From positions 994,688 through 1,058,687 of the forward strand of contig LSYV01000019.1 in NCBI GenBank assembly GCA_001584585.1: 64,000 nucleotides of DNA, read 5' to 3'. The position numbers and the translations under genes are program-made. Positions 2,467 to 42,335 of this stretch are shown one piece after another (position 1 is the stretch's first letter; every line of letters starts with the position of its first letter). The notes under the pieces were generated by a model. The model had not been told where the DNA came from. It saw only the letters and a program-made list of their open reading frames with translations, and searched no databases. Source of the stretch: Gonium pectorale (Eukaryota; Chlorophyta; Chlorophyceae; Chlamydomonadales; Volvocaceae).

Positions 2467-3767
2467 ATGGAGGCCGAGTGTTTTATCTGCCGCAATGAGT
2501 GGAACGCGACGGCGCATGCGCCGCACGTCATCCCCTGCGGCCACACGCTGTGCCGCGAGTGCCTGCAGCGGCCCGAGATGCGCGAGTGCCCCTTCTGCAA
2601 GGCGGCCATCCGCGGCTGCGCGGACCTGCCCTGCAATCACGCGCTCATGACGCTGCTCGCCAGCAAGGACGCCGGTGCTCCCAGGGGCGTGTGCCCAAAG
2701 GCCTCGCTGCAGCTGACCCAAGTAGGTGCATATGGTGGATCTTGCGGGTTTTGGCAGGAGGCGCTCCCTGATACCGTAACCTGTAGTGCCGATTCCTTAA
2801 TCATGCGTGCCTACAGCACGCCCGTGCTGTAACTTGACCTACCAGTAGCATGCTCTGGCCGTTCATTGGGATTGGCATTGCTGTTGCACGCGGCTGCATG
2901 CCCAGCCCAGCAACGGGTCTCCCCGTACGACGGGTAGGGTGCTGTGCCTCGGCTGCTTGATACGGAATCCTGGCCGTTGGACGCCAACCCAAACCCTTGT
3001 TGCAGATCTTCGTCCGTACCATGACGGACCTAACCATCAACGCGCACGTGGACCTGTACAGCACCGTTGCGGACCTCAAGGCCCTGATCAGAGACATAAC
3101 GGGTGAGCCCACGAGGGTGGAGGCTCGGGTGCGAGAAACAGACAGCAAAGAAAGAGAAAGTCATGCAGCCACCTCTACGGAGATGCACACCCGAAGCATC
3201 GGCATTACCAGTAGGACGGTTGGTACAGGGCATGGCGGGCAATGGCGCCCGGTTTAGTTTTCGTTGTAGCACGGGCGCAGTGCGGGTTGGACATGAAGTG
3301 GCCTGGGCGGTCTGGCGCCTGAGGCGGCGCCGCCTGGCCCGGCTCGCCGCACTGCTCCCGGGCATAATTCGCAGCACGTTGGGGAATCCAACGCCGAACA
3401 CCGTGTGGGTGAGCACTGTGAACCTTGAACCAGGGCACAGACAGCTGGGCCGAACAGGCGAGAGGGAGGCGCATCCAGCGGAACCGGCGTGCACCTTGAA
3501 CCTTCCGTGGTGCCCTTCCGCATCTCTCGTCCATGTTATCGGTATCCTGTAACATGGTCAAGTACCCCCGTCTGCTGTTGACTGCGCCGTTGTCCCAACC
3601 AAGGCCCTCCCAACCCCCACCCTATTGGCCTCCCAGGCGTCCCCTCCAGCCAGCAGCGCCTCATCTACTGCGGGAAACAGCTGGAGGACGAGCGGGACCT
3701 GAGGTCCTATGCGATGAAGGCAAACGACACGGTACACATGATTGTGCGCCTGCGAGGTGGCTGCTGA
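2467..3767 (+). CDS. RING finger-ubiquitin-like fusion protein (three exons)
   Basis: Proposed exons are 2467-2721, 3006-3102 and 3637-3767, giving 160 aa. Exon 1 encodes a compact C3HC4 RING: Cys5, Cys8, Cys24, His26, Cys29, Cys32, Cys41 and Cys44, the pattern of E2-binding ubiquitin ligases. A phase-0 intron (gtaggt to ttgcag) joins it to a ubiquitin-like domain. Residues 85-159 align without a gap to ubiquitin positions 2-76, from QIFVRT to VRLRGG, and a single Cys follows before the stop. Positions matching ubiquitin Ile44, Lys48, His68 and Arg72 are kept; Lys6, 11, 29, 33 and 63 are changed. A C-terminal LRGG plus one residue is the form of a modifier precursor that a deubiquitinase could trim. 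Known RING/UBL fusions such as UHRF1 and parkin carry the UBL at the N-terminus, so this order is unusual. A second possibility is two adjacent genes, but the phase and the rebuilt QIFV argue for one. Function is inferred. Confidence 0.83.
3125..3243 (-). repeat. Dispersed ~100-bp repeat, copy 2 (inside intron 2 of the RING-UBL gene)
   Basis: The stretch running from a purine-rich aaagaaagagaaag, through cctctacgg and acacccgaag, to gtacagggcatggcgggc matches 30178-30280 in the same order. It is the diverged reverse complement of the copies at 1981 and 23416. It lies wholly within the 534-bp second intron, so it does not disturb the coding exons. Confidence 0.6.
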
Positions 3768-6075
3768 GGGGGTCATCGTGCTCCAACGCACGCTTCGCTG
3801 CGACTGACGCGACGGTTGGTGGTTGAAGGGGTCCGCCAGACGCCCGCACAACTTGCATGGAAGGACAATCTTCGTATGCCGCAGGATCCCTCGTTCTTTG
3901 CTGCTTTGTGTTTTGTTGAAACGCAAGTACTGGCGGCGCACGGGTCAGGTTCTGCTCGTGTGCTCAAGGGCATAACCGGGCAAGCTGACGCCATGCCATC
4001 TTGCCGTCGAGCCGTTAGGCGCACCCGGTGGCTGCAGGTTGCGCATGATTTGTGTGCATTGAGCAGCAACCCACGCAACAAATCCGACTGTACAAGGGGA
4101 TTCTTAGTTGGCTAGGTCTGGCACGTAAGGGCATTGCTTGCACGCTGCACTGCTNNNNNNNNNNNNNNNNNNNNNNNNNNNNNNNNNNNNNNNNNNNNNN
4201 NNNNNNNNNNNNNNNNNNNNNNNNNNNNNNNNNNNNNNNNNNNNNNNNNNNNNNNNNNNNNNNNNNNNNNNNNNNNNNNNNNNNNNNNNNNNNNNNNNNN
4301 NNNNNNNNNNNNNNNNNNNNNNNNNNNNNNNNNNNNNNNNNNNNNNNNNTTACCCGGTGTGTCGGACTTCACCTGGTGAACTGTTACTTGTCCAGGTGGA
4401 GCTGCGGTGGTGTTGTTGTCGCGGTCACCGGTCCGACGGCGCTCAGCGGTTACTAGACCGCTTGATGGTCGCTTCGCACGGGAGAACCTGTGTGTGGGAC
4501 ATGCGGCTGGAGCCCTCTGAGCCAGGCAGACAGGAGACGAGCCAGCAGAATGGAGGTCCCGTATGCATGCACCTTGATGCGCTAGTTTGAGGTGTGTCGC
4601 TGCACGCTCACCTGCGATGCAACCCCGCCCGCGCGCCAGTCGACAGGGCGCCTGCAAGATGTGTAACTAGGTTTTGAGTATTCTGCAGCCGTTCCCGTAC
4701 GGCAACGCAACCGACTCAATCCTGGGGCGGACCGCCTGGCTCCGCTTGTGTAGGGTCTGCTGCATTCCATTTACTCCCGTACCCGGCGGGCAGAGGCCGG
4801 GAAAGATGACGGAAAGACAACAGTAAGTAAGCAAACATGCCGGAAAAGAAGCGATCGAGGGGATGGAGGGTGGGTCCCTGCCCCGAACCGGAAAAGGAAA
4901 GAATGCAGGACCCAGGAGAGGAAAAAACAAGCAGAAACAAAAAGCGTCCATCGGAGTTTTGCCAAACGCTCCGAGGGGCCCTCCGGCACGCCGTTCCTTT
5001 GGAACACACATACCCGAGCCTCTCCTTGGCTCTGCGCTTCCCCCTCAAGCTCGTGTTCGCTTTGCGGCTGTGTCTTAGGCCTCGCCCTTGAGTCTGGCCC
5101 CTAACTGATCACTTCAGCCTTTACGTGAGAGCAGTGAAGAGTTTGGGCGCCCACACTGGCGACATCCATATTGCTCAGTCATTTATGCAAAGGATCGTAC
5201 TGGCAAACATGCGGGAGCCTGTGTGGCTGTTGTTCATTGGTATTTCTACGCGATGTGCCGCCAGCCTTCGGGCGCCCTGCGGGCCCTGGCGGGCTGGCGG
5301 CTGCCGGCCGTTCCTGGAAAGTGGAAAGCGTTACAGAGGGCGGACCTAATTCTCGGCAAGAGACTGCACTCTTCTGCGCTCGTTGCAGTTGTCAGCATAG
5401 AGCATACCCACAAGTAGATGGCTGTATGCTGCATCTGTCATCTGCAGCAATGCATGCGGCGTCATGCGGCAGCTGGGACGCCGCAGCCCACACGCTGCGG
5501 CGGGGCCCCTTGAGGCCATGCTGTGTCCATAGTCTGCACATGCACGGATGAGTTGGGGGAAGTTACAGCACACCTTGGCCGCTCCACGTTTGGGCGTGGT
5601 GAATAGGGCTGCGTCGTGCATACGGTAAGATGCTCAGAGCATGGGCTGACCCGCTACCAGCTTTGTGTGTTGCGCCTAAGACATTAAGATAGGACGTTTA
5701 CGCGCGATGGCAAGAGGTCGAGCAGCCGGAACGAGGATGGGAACGCCCTTTTGATACTGTATGGAGACATGGAGTACATGCATGTTTTTTTGGCGCGCGC
5801 CCATCAAACCATAGTATCCTTATTCATGTGCACTGCACGTCACTGCATCACGATGTCCTGGCTGGCCCGGTTACGTACGAGGTGCATCACAGTTGTGAGC
5901 GTTGTCAATATCACAAGCATGCATGATCCTGTAAATACGCCTTCCTTGCAGGCATGATTGGCGTCGATAGGCGCGAGAATAACTTGCTGTTCGTTGGTCG
6001 CTGTTATCTTGGCATTGACTACCTTTAATCCCTTAAATTGCTAGCCTGTAACGATTTAAGAAGCTTGGCAGAGAA
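3768..6075. other. Intergenic region, no supported gene
   Basis: This holds the 3' flank of the RING-UBL gene and the 5' flank of the SET gene, with a run of N at 4155-4349. Open frames such as 4667-5011 (minus) and 5171-5551 (plus) have no recognisable domain and look like shadows. I see no RNA gene or repeat that I can name. Confidence 0.5.
4155..4349. other. Assembly gap (195 N)
   Basis: A run of 195 undetermined bases. The flanks do not repeat each other, unlike the gap at 41574-42335, so this appears to be real missing sequence or an estimated gap. Confidence 0.98.
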
Positions 6076-9000
6076 ATGCGTGCGCTTCAGGGTCACTTGC
6101 CCGTCCCGAACCCATGTCCTTCGGCTTTAGGCCACTTGCCGCGAACTACGCGCAATTGTATCCACGTACGTAGCTCCCATATCGCGCAGCGCAATGGCGC
6201 CGGGCGCGGATGCCCTATCGCTGCAAGCGTCGCCGTCGCTGCCCCACTTCCCACAACTCTCGACCCCGGCGCATCGCGCGAGGAACCACGCGACCAGCTT
6301 GCAGAGCTTGAGGCACTGGCGAAGGCTGCGGGCGTGCAGCGCCTCGTGCGTTGCGGGCCGACGCCGTTGGGTCGCGGGCTCGTCGCCAAGCAAGCTCTGG
6401 ACCGTCAGACTATCGTCTCTGTCCCAATAGAAAACGCACTCGTCATCACAGGTAAACGCGGGTTGCATATGCCGGCTGCGCCCCGTGGGTCATACCGATC
6501 ATTTGAACGTGCCTTGCCACGGGGCCAAGCCCGTCCCAGTGCACCTGACTGCTTCTACTGAGCTTCCTGTCGGGTTTGACATCCTTCAAATCAACAGCTA
6601 CCCCATCATGTGCCCTTGCGCCGTCCACCGACTCGCCCGTGCACTGGTTGCGTGGACAGACGAGCCCCTTGATGGCATCAGCATCTTTGGCGACCGCTGC
6701 CAGGAGGCCTGGCAGAACGCCCACACCCGCATGCCCAGCGAGCTCACGGACTTTCTGACGGGTAAGGGCGCTGTTGGCTGGTCGGGCGGGCGGGCGGGGG
6801 GTTGAGTCAGTGGTTGTGTCCAGGCACGCGGGCAGCCAAGCCAGCGGGCCCGGGCGGGCGTCTCGGGAGCAGGGTCGCAGCTTGGTGCAAGGGGCAGCTG
6901 CTGCAAGGCAGCGCCCACATGGGCGACGTGTCGTAGTCGTATTGCTGTCCCCAACCAGCAGCAGCAATCAACACAACCCCGTTAGCAGCAGAGTTTTTGC
7001 TTATTTTATACAGATACAGATACAGATCTTATGGTTCCTTATGGCTCCTCGTTGCCCCTCCCTCTACTACGACCTTAGCTTATACGATACTACCTAGCTG
7101 TACGCAACTCAGCCATCGACGCGGACGCCGCCGGAAACGGCGGCACACACCTGGCGGCTGCTGGACCTTCGGATCGCCGAAACTCTCGGGAGCCGGCGAA
7201 ACGAGGCAAGGACCGGCTTGGCCGCCGGACTGGACTTACGCTGCTGGCGCCCAGCTCGTCGTTTTTCATTCTCTTTTCCCTTCAACCCCCCTCTGAAACT
7301 TCACCTGGCAAGTCTGGGTCATTCGCTCATTCCCCTGCTGCGGCCCTGACTCTCCCGCAGGCGACGCACGCTGGGACGTGCGCATGACCGCGTGGCTGCT
7401 GTGGGTGGCGTCGGAGCTGCCGGAACACCCCATATGGGGCCCCTACGTGGCCAACCTGCCGCCCGCGGACGAGGTGGGATAGGGCCGTCTAGCCCCTGGG
7501 CCGCTGCCCCAAGACCCGGTCTAGGGCCGGTCTGGGCTTGCGCCTGGGATGTCGCGGGCATGTGCGGATGTTGCAGCTTTTCAGGGGCCGACCTTCCAGA
7601 CAGACGGGTTGCCTGGAGGTGAAAGACGGCTTGCGCGGACACATCGTGCCGCCATGGGTGGCACCGTCGCTAACGACGCGCTGCGTTGCCAAGCCGTCGC
7701 TGCGGTGGCCGCTGCGTACAGGTGACGTGCCTCATCAACTACGGACCCGACGACGCAAAGGAGCTCCAGATGCGGGAGCTGGTCGTGAGTCGGGAGGAGG
7801 GGCGAGGAAGAAGGCGGCATTCGGGTTGCCACTCGGCGGGGGTGTGTGTGAGGAGGAGGGAACCGTGGACGAGATCCAGGGAGTGGGGCGATGGTGGCGC
7901 AAAGGACTGCGGAGCGGGAGCTTGCGTCATGTGCGCGTTGCCGTGTATTGGACCGTGGCGTTGCAGCGTGCTCTCGCTTGGGTGCCGTCGCACTGGAGAC
8001 CCGCCTCCAGCGCACGTTGGTGCGCCACTGCGTTCGTACGTGCGCTGTAAAAGAGCGTGCTGGCCAATGCCGTCGCGTCCTGTGGTGATCCGTAACAACC
8101 ACGGCTTGGGAACGCTGTCAGCGGCGGCCCGTTACCGCGTTCCCGGCCCTCGCAGGACGAGGCAAAGACGCAATACAACTGGGCGACGGGCGTGCACCGC
8201 AGGTGGGGCGGCCGCCGCGTGACCCGGTGGCCCTTCACGTCACAGCCTTCCTTGCTGGGACATATTCTCGCTCTCCGAATGGGGGCAAAGGTGCCGTCAT
8301 GCTGCAAACTCGGTTGCCCTCTGTCTACCCCTGCCTCCCTCGACCCCGCCTCGTCATGTCTATCTATCCGTGAGCACCGGTGAATAACTGCGGCAAAGGT
8401 CCATACGTCCATATGTCGGCCTCACCCTGCCCGCCTCCCGTGTCCCATTCCACGCGCCCCTCATGCCGTGTTTTGCCTCGGTGAACGCAACTGATCCCCG
8501 CTCTCTCCTGGCGTGTTTGCCGTTGAAGGTACTTTTGCTCGGAGCGGGGTGAGCTGCGGCGGCTGCGGCTGGCGGCCTCACAGCGCGACACCCTGTGGGC
8601 CATGTCAATGGTGAGTGCTCCAGGCTGAGTGGACGGGGGCAGTGAAGGGGCGCAGCTTACCTCGCTCAAATTAAGGAGAAGTCTGGGACGACAGTCCGCT
8701 CGAGGGTCCTTCAGCTGGGTGCCAAGTTAGGGGCCAAGGCTTATGAATTCATGGGGAGACCGGCGCTGCGTTACCTGCCGGCCACAAACACCACATACCC
8801 AACCACTTCTCCTGGTGCGCGGCAGGTGCGGACCCGCACCTTCTCCGAGTCGGTCAACGGCGAGAGTTTGACCCTCATGGTGCCGTATGCCGACCTGGCC
8901 AACCACTCGTTCCGCTTCAACTCGACGTTCTGCATGTCGCGGGACAACCGCCGGTGGGTTTGGAAGGATTGCGGCAGGAACTCCTCCCATGTTTTGAATA

Positions 9001-18114: not shown

Positions 18115-18760
18115 TCGTTGTCGTGTGTTACGTCGTGCGAATATGCGTGCGTGCTTGCTTGTGGACATGCTGCAAGCGAACAGACAAGGCAAACAGACTA
18201 GGCGAGGAAGGCGAGCGAGGCGAGGCAAACAGTCGAACAGCCGAGCAGTCTGGCATTCTAGCGTTCTAGCCGGCAGCCCAACAACCCATTACGCATTGTA
18301 CCCGCTACCCGCTCCCGCTACATGCCCCCGCTATGTGGCACCCGCTGGCCTGGGGGAACCCGAGTGACTTAACGCTGCAATGGCGGCTGGGCTGGCTGAG
18401 CTGGGCTGGGCTGGGCTGCTCTCCAGACAGCAGAACCGGTAGTGCGGGAGTCGTTGTCGTGTGTGTGTGTGTGTTACGTCATGTGAATGTGCGTGCTTGT
18501 GGCTGCAAACAGGCTAGGCGAGGTAGGCGAGCGAGGCGAGGCAAACAGACTAGGCGAGGTAGGCGAGCGAGGCGAGGCAAACAGACTAGGCGAGGTAGGC
18601 GAGCGAGGCGAGGCAAGCGAGGCGAGGCAAACAGGCGAGCAGTCTGGCATCGTGTGTGTTACGTCATGCGAATGTGCGTGCGTGTGGACAGGCTNNNNNN
18701 NNNNNNNNNNNNNNCGTGGCATCGTGTGTGTGTGTATGTGTGTGTGTCCACAGCGGCATG
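18115..18760. repeat. Composite satellite with 36-bp inner units
   Basis: Three larger blocks start with a gtcgttgtcgtgtgt-like or catcgtgtgtg segment, then ttacgtc, then atgtgcgtgc, then a caaacaggctaggcgagg-like part. They start near 18115, 18447 and 18650. The middle block contains three perfect or near-perfect 36-bp units at 18505-18540, 18541-18576 and 18577-18612 built from aggcgag and caaacag motifs, followed by a partial unit. The 20-N gap lies in the last block, as expected where repeats hinder assembly. Confidence 0.8.
18695..18714. other. Assembly gap (20 N)
   Basis: Twenty undetermined bases inside the composite satellite; the number is probably a placeholder. Confidence 0.95.
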
Positions 18761-41573: not shown

Positions 41574-42335
41574 NNNNNNNNNNNNNNNNNNNNNNNNNNN
41601 NNNNNNNNNNNNNNNNNNNNNNNNNNNNNNNNNNNNNNNNNNNNNNNNNNNNNNNNNNNNNNNNNNNNNNNNNNNNNNNNNNNNNNNNNNNNNNNNNNNN
41701 NNNNNNNNNNNNNNNNNNNNNNNNNNNNNNNNNNNNNNNNNNNNNNNNNNNNNNNNNNNNNNNNNNNNNNNNNNNNNNNNNNNNNNNNNNNNNNNNNNNN
41801 NNNNNNNNNNNNNNNNNNNNNNNNNNNNNNNNNNNNNNNNNNNNNNNNNNNNNNNNNNNNNNNNNNNNNNNNNNNNNNNNNNNNNNNNNNNNNNNNNNNN
41901 NNNNNNNNNNNNNNNNNNNNNNNNNNNNNNNNNNNNNNNNNNNNNNNNNNNNNNNNNNNNNNNNNNNNNNNNNNNNNNNNNNNNNNNNNNNNNNNNNNNN
42001 NNNNNNNNNNNNNNNNNNNNNNNNNNNNNNNNNNNNNNNNNNNNNNNNNNNNNNNNNNNNNNNNNNNNNNNNNNNNNNNNNNNNNNNNNNNNNNNNNNNN
42101 NNNNNNNNNNNNNNNNNNNNNNNNNNNNNNNNNNNNNNNNNNNNNNNNNNNNNNNNNNNNNNNNNNNNNNNNNNNNNNNNNNNNNNNNNNNNNNNNNNNN
42201 NNNNNNNNNNNNNNNNNNNNNNNNNNNNNNNNNNNNNNNNNNNNNNNNNNNNNNNNNNNNNNNNNNNNNNNNNNNNNNNNNNNNNNNNNNNNNNNNNNNN
42301 NNNNNNNNNNNNNNNNNNNNNNNNNNNNNNNNNNN
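41574..42335. other. Assembly gap (762 N), probably false
   Basis: Because the sequence on both sides is the same 185 bp, this gap most likely has no missing DNA. The two contigs overlap and should be merged, removing the gap, the vector bases and one copy. Confidence 0.9.

What the first reader, a model, noticed from the sequence alone, without database searches (positions are those of the whole stretch)
2467..3767. RING finger fused to a C-terminal ubiquitin-like domain ending LRGG-C
One short gene seems to encode both a C3HC4 RING, which recruits an E2 enzyme, and a ubiquitin-like domain that aligns without gaps to ubiquitin 2-76 and ends in the diglycine plus one extra residue. Known eukaryotic UBL/RING fusions put the UBL first and lack a free diglycine. 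Here the UBL is last and could be cut by a deubiquitinase to give a conjugatable modifier, made one-to-one with its own candidate ligase. The splice phase (0) and the rebuilt QIFV at the junction support one protein.
Basis: partly seen in the sequence, partly recalled or inferred. Interest (0 to 1): 0.8.

Follow-up and report, generated by a model that had tools for sequence, protein, structure and literature searches.

The report
RING and ubiquitin-like fusion gene
A small gene of what appears to be the colonial green alga Gonium pectorale joins a RING finger (the docking part of many ubiquitin ligases) to a ubiquitin look-alike with an intact tail, so the two would stay in one protein; it is an unusual but not unprecedented fusion, and nothing yet shows that it is expressed or works.

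Summary
Three exons (2467-2721, 3006-3102, 3637-3767) encode a 160-aa protein: a C3HC4 RING, then a ubiquitin-like domain (UBL; 37 of 75 residues identical to human ubiquitin, no gaps) ending LRGG-C. The same protein is annotated in Gonium pectorale (GPECTOR_18g115). No diglycine precedes the UBL, so ordinary processing could remove the final Cys but not free the UBL: any modifier would be the whole RING-UBL. 'UBL after RING' is not unique: Astrephomene (annotated) and Gonium (my exon models) have long RING-kinase-UBL-GG-KPV proteins, and ubiquitin-RING fusions are published for Bigelowiella and Guillardia. The window gene differs from the long family: its UBL intron lies in the Gly35 codon, as in Gonium polyubiquitin; intron 1 ends TTG-CAG, where ubiquitin has ATG-CAG; and it stops one residue after GG, as a Gonium polyubiquitin gene does. 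Best reading: a chimera of a RING exon and a polyubiquitin-derived unit, plausibly an E3 with a conjugatable tail. The trees do not settle the origin; function is inference. No other short RING-UBL was seen, but the wider search was swamped by polyubiquitins. No expression data could be checked.

The parts
2467..2721 (+). Exon 1: start codon, C3HC4 RING (residues 4-45), linker ending ...PKASLQLT-Q
   Evidence: linker lines up with the RING-to-kinase linker of a C16 gene, P0012 and P0013
2722..3005 (+). Intron 1 (phase 0), gtaggt...ttgcag
3000..3005 (+). TTG CAG, in frame with exon 2: probable relic of the ubiquitin start codons ATG CAG (Met1-Gln2), CAG now being the splice acceptor
   Evidence: inference from comparison with Gonium polyubiquitin
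3006..3102 (+). Exon 2: UBL residues 3-34 and first base of the Gly35 codon
3103..3636 (+). Intron 2 (phase 1, inside the Gly35 codon), same position as in Gonium polyubiquitin genes
3637..3767 (+). Exon 3: rest of the UBL, LRGG, one Cys, stop codon TGA
3756..3764 (+). Gly-Gly-Cys codons of the C-terminus (GGT GGC TGC)

Best explanation
GPECTOR_18g115 is a chimeric gene. Its first exon is a RING exon related to those of volvocine RING-kinase genes; exons 2 and 3 are a diverged ubiquitin unit that keeps the polyubiquitin Gly35 intron and the one-residue tail, brought in when the RING exon began to splice to the CAG of the unit's Gln2 codon. The product is a small RING protein with a UBL permanently on its C-terminal side, whose tail is used covalently. 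Mechanism proposed, step by step: (1) a ubiquitin C-terminal hydrolase trims the last Cys, exposing LRGG (inferred); (2) because the tail (R72, R74, G75, G76), R42, Q40 and I44 are kept and ubiquitin tolerates fusions on its N-terminus (recalled), the ubiquitin E1 may charge the whole RING-UBL like N-terminally tagged ubiquitin (inferred); (3) the RING, with all zinc ligands and a Lys just after the last ligand, binds an E2 and promotes transfer of the RING-UBL, to itself or to substrates (inferred). Shown: the gene structure, the domains and the kept residues. Not shown: expression, processing, activity. The confidence is for chimera plus covalent use of the tail in some form.
For: Exon structure and frame; identical annotated protein; 37/75 identity to ubiquitin with R42, I44, K48, H68 and the tail RLRGG kept; model of the UBL at pLDDT about 97, closest to ubiquitin among the 50 listed PDB matches (TM-score by target up to 0.97). 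Origin: the Gly35 phase-1 intron is shared with Gonium polyubiquitin and differs from the phase-0 intron between UBL residues 29 and 30 of the long C6 and C8 genes (same joints in annotated P0008, P0009); intron 1 ends TTG-CAG before ATC TTC GTC; stop one residue after GG, as in a polyubiquitin gene of C20. The RING is nearest to two C16 genes (41% identity; 7-row tree, where the window row has a flagged long branch). RING relatives in the PDB include ligases (Roquin-1 E 3.3e-7, TRIM32 E 3.6e-6).
Against: No transcript or protein evidence. Only one species has the short form among what was seen. The UBL has lost half of ubiquitin's residues, including five of seven lysines, and L8 and L71 (to M and V), so E1 recognition is doubtful. 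The UBL tree does not resolve its origin: holding it with the Gonium long-family UBLs is not rejected (AU p 0.379; with eight rows 0.253), and C8 is as close to it (37) as ubiquitin is (37). Its sister in the tree is a fungal UBL, P0021_2 (91/93, not starred), which fits no simple origin. The RING was poorly modelled (block means 39-55 pLDDT over residues 1-80).
Confidence: 0.4

Rival explanations
1. The protein is a RING E3 whose UBL acts only without covalent attachment: it docks proteasome subunits, ubiquitin receptors or the E2, or restrains the RING, as UBLs of Parkin-type ligases do (recalled), and the LRGG tail is a leftover of its polyubiquitin ancestry.
For: The hydrophobic patch is largely kept (I44 and H68 same, V70 to I, L8 to M); long volvocine relatives carry an internal UBL that follows RING and kinase, so a UBL in cis with RING is a family habit.
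Against: The tail RLRGG is fully kept here, which only a conjugated UBL is expected to need; but GG is also kept in 14 of 14 internal UBL-KPV joints (13 proteins), so GG alone proves little.
Confidence: 0.33
2. A decaying or very young gene: a by-product of gene shuffling or a shortened copy of a RING-kinase-UBL-KPV gene without a lasting function.
For: Only this copy of the short form was found in the genome, no short relative seen elsewhere, half of the ubiquitin residues changed. Weak likenesses to a kinase glycine loop (start of intron 1) and to the KPV segment (after the stop) appear.
Against: Frame, splice sites, all zinc ligands and the UBL tail are intact and third-position GC is coding-like. 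The two likenesses are not clearly better than shuffles (p 0.17 and 0.058); the second is borderline. The intron position differs from the long family.
Confidence: 0.2
3. Two genes wrongly joined: the RING exon and the UBL exons belong to separate transcripts.
For: No read evidence was available to prove the junction; fusions can arise in annotation.
Against: The UBL frame upstream of 3006 has no ATG back to the stop at 2958-2960 (ORF 2961-3257), so a lone UBL gene would need another upstream exon or lack its first strand; the RING exon has a donor in phase with the acceptor; the annotation made with RNA-seq hints gives the same protein.
Confidence: 0.07

Closest known systems
Ubiquitin-zinc RING finger fusions of Bigelowiella natans (273 aa, 2 ubiquitins) and Guillardia theta (145 and 199 aa, 1 and 2 ubiquitins), PMC6332867 (section 4 read)
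   Same: One short algal gene encodes a RING and ubiquitin; the paper reports RNA-seq support for its fusions
   Different: Sequences not seen here; other phyla; two of three carry two ubiquitins; [quoted passage not shown] Here the UBL is C-terminal and shares only 37 of 75 residues with ubiquitin
Long volvocine RING-kinase-UBL-GG-KPV proteins (Astrephomene Agub_g5239 and Agub_g5237; Gonium C6 and C8 loci by my models; Tetrabaena P0014 has kinase and UBL, no RING in its annotation)
   Same: RING at the N-terminus, UBL with diglycine on its C-terminal side, same lineage
   Different: Kinase or pseudokinase between RING and UBL, KPV segment after GG, UBL intron at 29/30 instead of Gly35 in the two Gonium genes
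Gonium polyubiquitin genes (C19:1128469 region; C20:962-969 kb)
   Same: Phase-1 intron in Gly35; in C20 LRGG plus one residue, stop
   Different: Start at Met1, tandem units, nearly identical to human ubiquitin, no RING
UBL-first RING ligases (Parkin, UHRF1, HOIL-1; recalled)
   Same: RING-type domain and UBL in one protein
   Different: UBL at the N-terminus and no free diglycine tail (recalled)

Membership tests
RING finger (C3HC4) | Eight zinc ligands in C3HC4 order and a profile match over cut-off | tested here: met
   zf-RING_5 33.0 bits, cut-off 27.9; ligands read from the sequence
RING finger (C3HC4) | E2 binding and ligase activity | not testable with these tools
   Only likeness to solved ligase RINGs
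Ubiquitin-like proteins | Beta-grasp fold and profile match | tested here: met
   PF00240 72.9 bits; model pLDDT about 97, listed PDB matches are ubiquitin or ubiquitin variants
Conjugatable (type I) modifier | C-terminal diglycine with at most a short tail | tested here: met
   LRGG-C-stop
Conjugatable (type I) modifier | Free or releasable N-terminus, so that the UBL is a separate protein | tested here: not met
   No diglycine before the UBL; RING linker runs into QIFV
Conjugatable (type I) modifier | Charged by an E1 and found on substrates | not testable with these tools
   Needs biochemistry
Polyubiquitin-derived unit | Gly35 phase-1 intron as in the species' ubiquitin genes | tested here: met
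Polyubiquitin-derived unit | Grouping with ubiquitin in a tree | tested here: inconclusive
   Drawn on the side of the ubiquitins, sister to P0021_2, but weakly, and the rival grouping is not rejected
Volvocine RING-kinase-UBL-KPV family | Kinase domain between RING and UBL | tested here: not met
   No kinase domain match in the window; a weak glycine-loop likeness in intron 1 has p 0.17
Volvocine RING-kinase-UBL-KPV family | KPV segment after the diglycine | tested here: not met
   Stop after LRGGC; likeness after the stop has p 0.058
UBL-first RING ligases | UBL at the N-terminus | tested here: not met
   UBL is residues 85-159 of 160
Algal ubiquitin-RING fusions (PMC6332867) | RING and ubiquitin domain in one expressed gene | tested here: inconclusive
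   Both domains in one gene model; expression not tested; sequences of the published fusions not seen

The most novel reading that the evidence does not exclude
A ligase that is its own modifier: after trimming of the last Cys, the whole RING-UBL is charged by E1 and E2 and attached to substrates, delivering an E2-recruiting RING to the tagged site, where it builds further chains (the kept K48 of the UBL being one possible acceptor).
Probability: 0.2. Interest if true: 0.8.

Novelty: new variant of a known kind. Interest (0 to 1): 0.42.

Why it matters
If the whole protein is conjugated, a modifier would bring its own ligase to the target, an arrangement that I know only from engineered fusions (recalled). 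Even if not, the gene suggests step by step how a ubiquitin unit can be captured as downstream exons by a RING exon, with the Gln2 codon turned into a splice acceptor, in a lineage that already mixes RING, kinase and UBL modules. The side result, RING, kinase and UBL-GG in single volvocine proteins, puts the ingredients of a kinase-UBL-ligase circuit in one chain and can be tested directly.

Tried and rejected
Shortened copy of a long RING-kinase-UBL-KPV gene: looked for kinase remains in intron 1 (readthrough VGAYGGSCG beside a glycine loop) and KPV remains after the stop (APTHASLRL beside APTDAIVRL), both suggested. Against 3000 dinucleotide shuffles each, p 0.17 and 0.058: not accepted, though the second is borderline.

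Uniqueness search: one search gave 7 proteins among 57 candidates; only the self hit has RING labels. (profile of the window protein and four in-silico joined relatives) was swamped: 7966 candidates were scored, all passed, and the 120 listed all carry PF00240. The other 7846 were not seen, so absence elsewhere is not shown. Viral contigs: 6 loci encode a ubiquitin relative, 0 of 6 with a RING pattern in the same open frame; the one whose match seemed to reach further (L037) has ubiquitin in a longer frame without RING. Prokaryote genomes were not scanned.

Trees: 24 UBL rows and 7 RING rows are too short to settle origins; rows P0004, P0006, P0020 and the first unit of P0002 and P0003 were not put in. 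The model of the full protein is useful for the UBL only. The C2 UBL locus (LRGG-KGGFG...) looks like an SDE2-type gene (recalled, not tested) and was set aside. Two pieces of an open frame downstream (about 6190-6560) gave no Pfam match. Paper searches; no paper on this Gonium gene was seen in their listings. Searches returned nothing.

Full report
What is there. Residues 4-45 are a C3HC4 RING with all eight ligands; residues 85-159 are a ubiquitin-like domain with 37 of 75 residues identical to human ubiquitin, no gaps, ending LRGG, then Cys and stop. An identical protein is annotated in Gonium pectorale as hypothetical GPECTOR_18g115, from which the species of the window is inferred; that annotation used AUGUSTUS with RNA-seq intron hints (PMC4844696, passages only). 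The exons have coding-like third positions (GC 0.863) against intron GC of 0.585 and 0.622. There was no read to check; expression is unknown.

Relatives in the same genome. With the RING exon as query, 5 of 12 scored places match at E <= 0.01: itself, two loci on C16 (41% identity), C8 and C6. With the UBL, 11 of 20 scored places match, two of them the window exons, and among the rest again C6 and C8, 3.4 to 3.8 kb downstream of the RING matches on the same strand. Reading these two loci gives RING, protein kinase-like domain, an unnamed region, UBL, diglycine, then a segment starting KPVIC (Pfam on the C8 model, where its RING scores stay under the curated cut-offs, best E 0.00011). The C8 and C6 products are annotated without the RING (P0008, P0009), so the RING in them rests on my models; in C6 the RING and the annotated start lie in one open frame. 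By sequence, the HRD Asp and DFG Phe are replaced in both (inference: pseudokinases) and kept in the two C16 genes; one of the C16 genes, as a piece that I joined, scores as RING plus kinase.

Relatives elsewhere. A search with the C8 model listed 83 proteins at E <= 0.001 out of 7991 scored. I fetched 13 (P0008-P0019 and P0021). P0020 (a ubiquitin-bearing protein labelled Eukaryota) and the 69 rows below P0021 were dropped; by eye 65 of these 69 carry kinase labels and 4 ubiquitin labels. Two Astrephomene proteins have RING, kinase and UBL in that order (P0013 RING over two Pfam cut-offs; P0012 just under, zf-RING_5 E 2e-5). Tetrabaena P0014 has kinase and UBL; Edaphochlamys P0015 has ankyrin repeats and UBL; Chlamydomonas P0016 has the UBL alone by Pfam; a fungus (Moniliophthora, P0021) has two UBL-GG-KPV units. 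All 14 UBL-KPV joints in the 13 proteins keep GG, though one UBL (P0018) keeps only 13 residues of ubiquitin in an ungapped register.

Where the window gene stands. It lacks the kinase and KPV parts. Its UBL intron is inside the Gly35 codon, phase 1, exactly as in Gonium polyubiquitin (AAG GAG G|gt...ag|GC ATC), while the C6 and C8 UBLs are split between residues 29 and 30 (same joints in the annotated proteins); the Tetrabaena protein carries an insert at that same place that looks like a retained intron. Intron 1 ends TTG CAG just before ATC TTC GTC, where ubiquitin has ATG CAG ATC; so the unit's Met1 has been lost and its Gln2 codon serves as acceptor, the Gln of the protein being supplied by exon 1 (inference). 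A Gonium polyubiquitin gene of C20 ends GGT GGC CAG TGA, the window gene GGT GGC TGC TGA. I take this as evidence for a chimera between a RING exon and a polyubiquitin unit. Against it, the tree does not reject a place with the Gonium long-family UBLs (AU p 0.379), C8 is as similar as ubiquitin (37 each), and the row drawn as its sister is fungal.

How it may work. Trimming of one Cys would leave RING-UBL-GG. Ubiquitin with large N-terminal tags is widely used in cells and is conjugated (recalled), so an N-terminal RING is no obstacle in principle; R72, the residue that the ubiquitin E1 reads (recalled), is kept. I therefore put chimera plus covalent use of the tail first, at 0.4, with the full ligase-as-modifier reading at 0.2, and non-covalent use of the UBL second at 0.33. 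The predicted structure supports a ubiquitin fold and says nothing useful about the RING.

Novelty. Ubiquitin-RING fusions in algae are in print (PMC6332867, section 4 read; its figure is not held). That paper's targeted search of Chlamydomonas found no ubiquitin fusion beyond the two ribosomal ones; the diverged P0016 here would escape a search for clear ubiquitin. The same paper reports a ubiquitin-IMP fusion common in fungi, mostly with ubiquitin in the middle (passages of section 6); the KPV proteins may be that family, which I did not test. What seems new is the short RING-UBL of a green alga with a strongly diverged UBL, and the volvocine RING-kinase-UBL proteins; no paper on either was seen in the listings.

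Noticed in passing
L025 (G000:C6:505500-514500) and L026 (G000:C8:327000-336500): Genes with RING, kinase-like domain lacking the usual HRD Asp and DFG Phe, UBL-GG and a KPVIC segment; annotated without the RING.
   Followed up: partly
P0008-P0019 and P0021 (13 proteins): The diglycine before KPV is kept in 14 of 14 UBL-KPV joints although the UBLs have drifted far from ubiquitin; a cleavage or structural role of this joint is untested.
   Followed up: partly
G000:C16:2081378 and 2136143 (L027, L028): Two similar RING-kinase genes about 55 kb apart with kinase motifs kept; in the first the third RING Cys reads Arg; open frames downstream resemble ankyrin repeats (by eye).
   Followed up: partly
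G000:C19:1128469-1131367 (L030): Polyubiquitin units followed by a RUB/NEDD8-like unit about 130 kb downstream of the window gene on the same contig; a possible source of the captured unit.
   Followed up: no
L031 (G000:C2, minus strand): A UBL ending LRGG followed by KGGFG and a charged region, reminiscent of SDE2 (recalled).
   Followed up: no
window 4155-4349, 18695-18714, 41574-42335: Three runs of N, the first 388 bases downstream of the stop codon of the finding.
   Followed up: no
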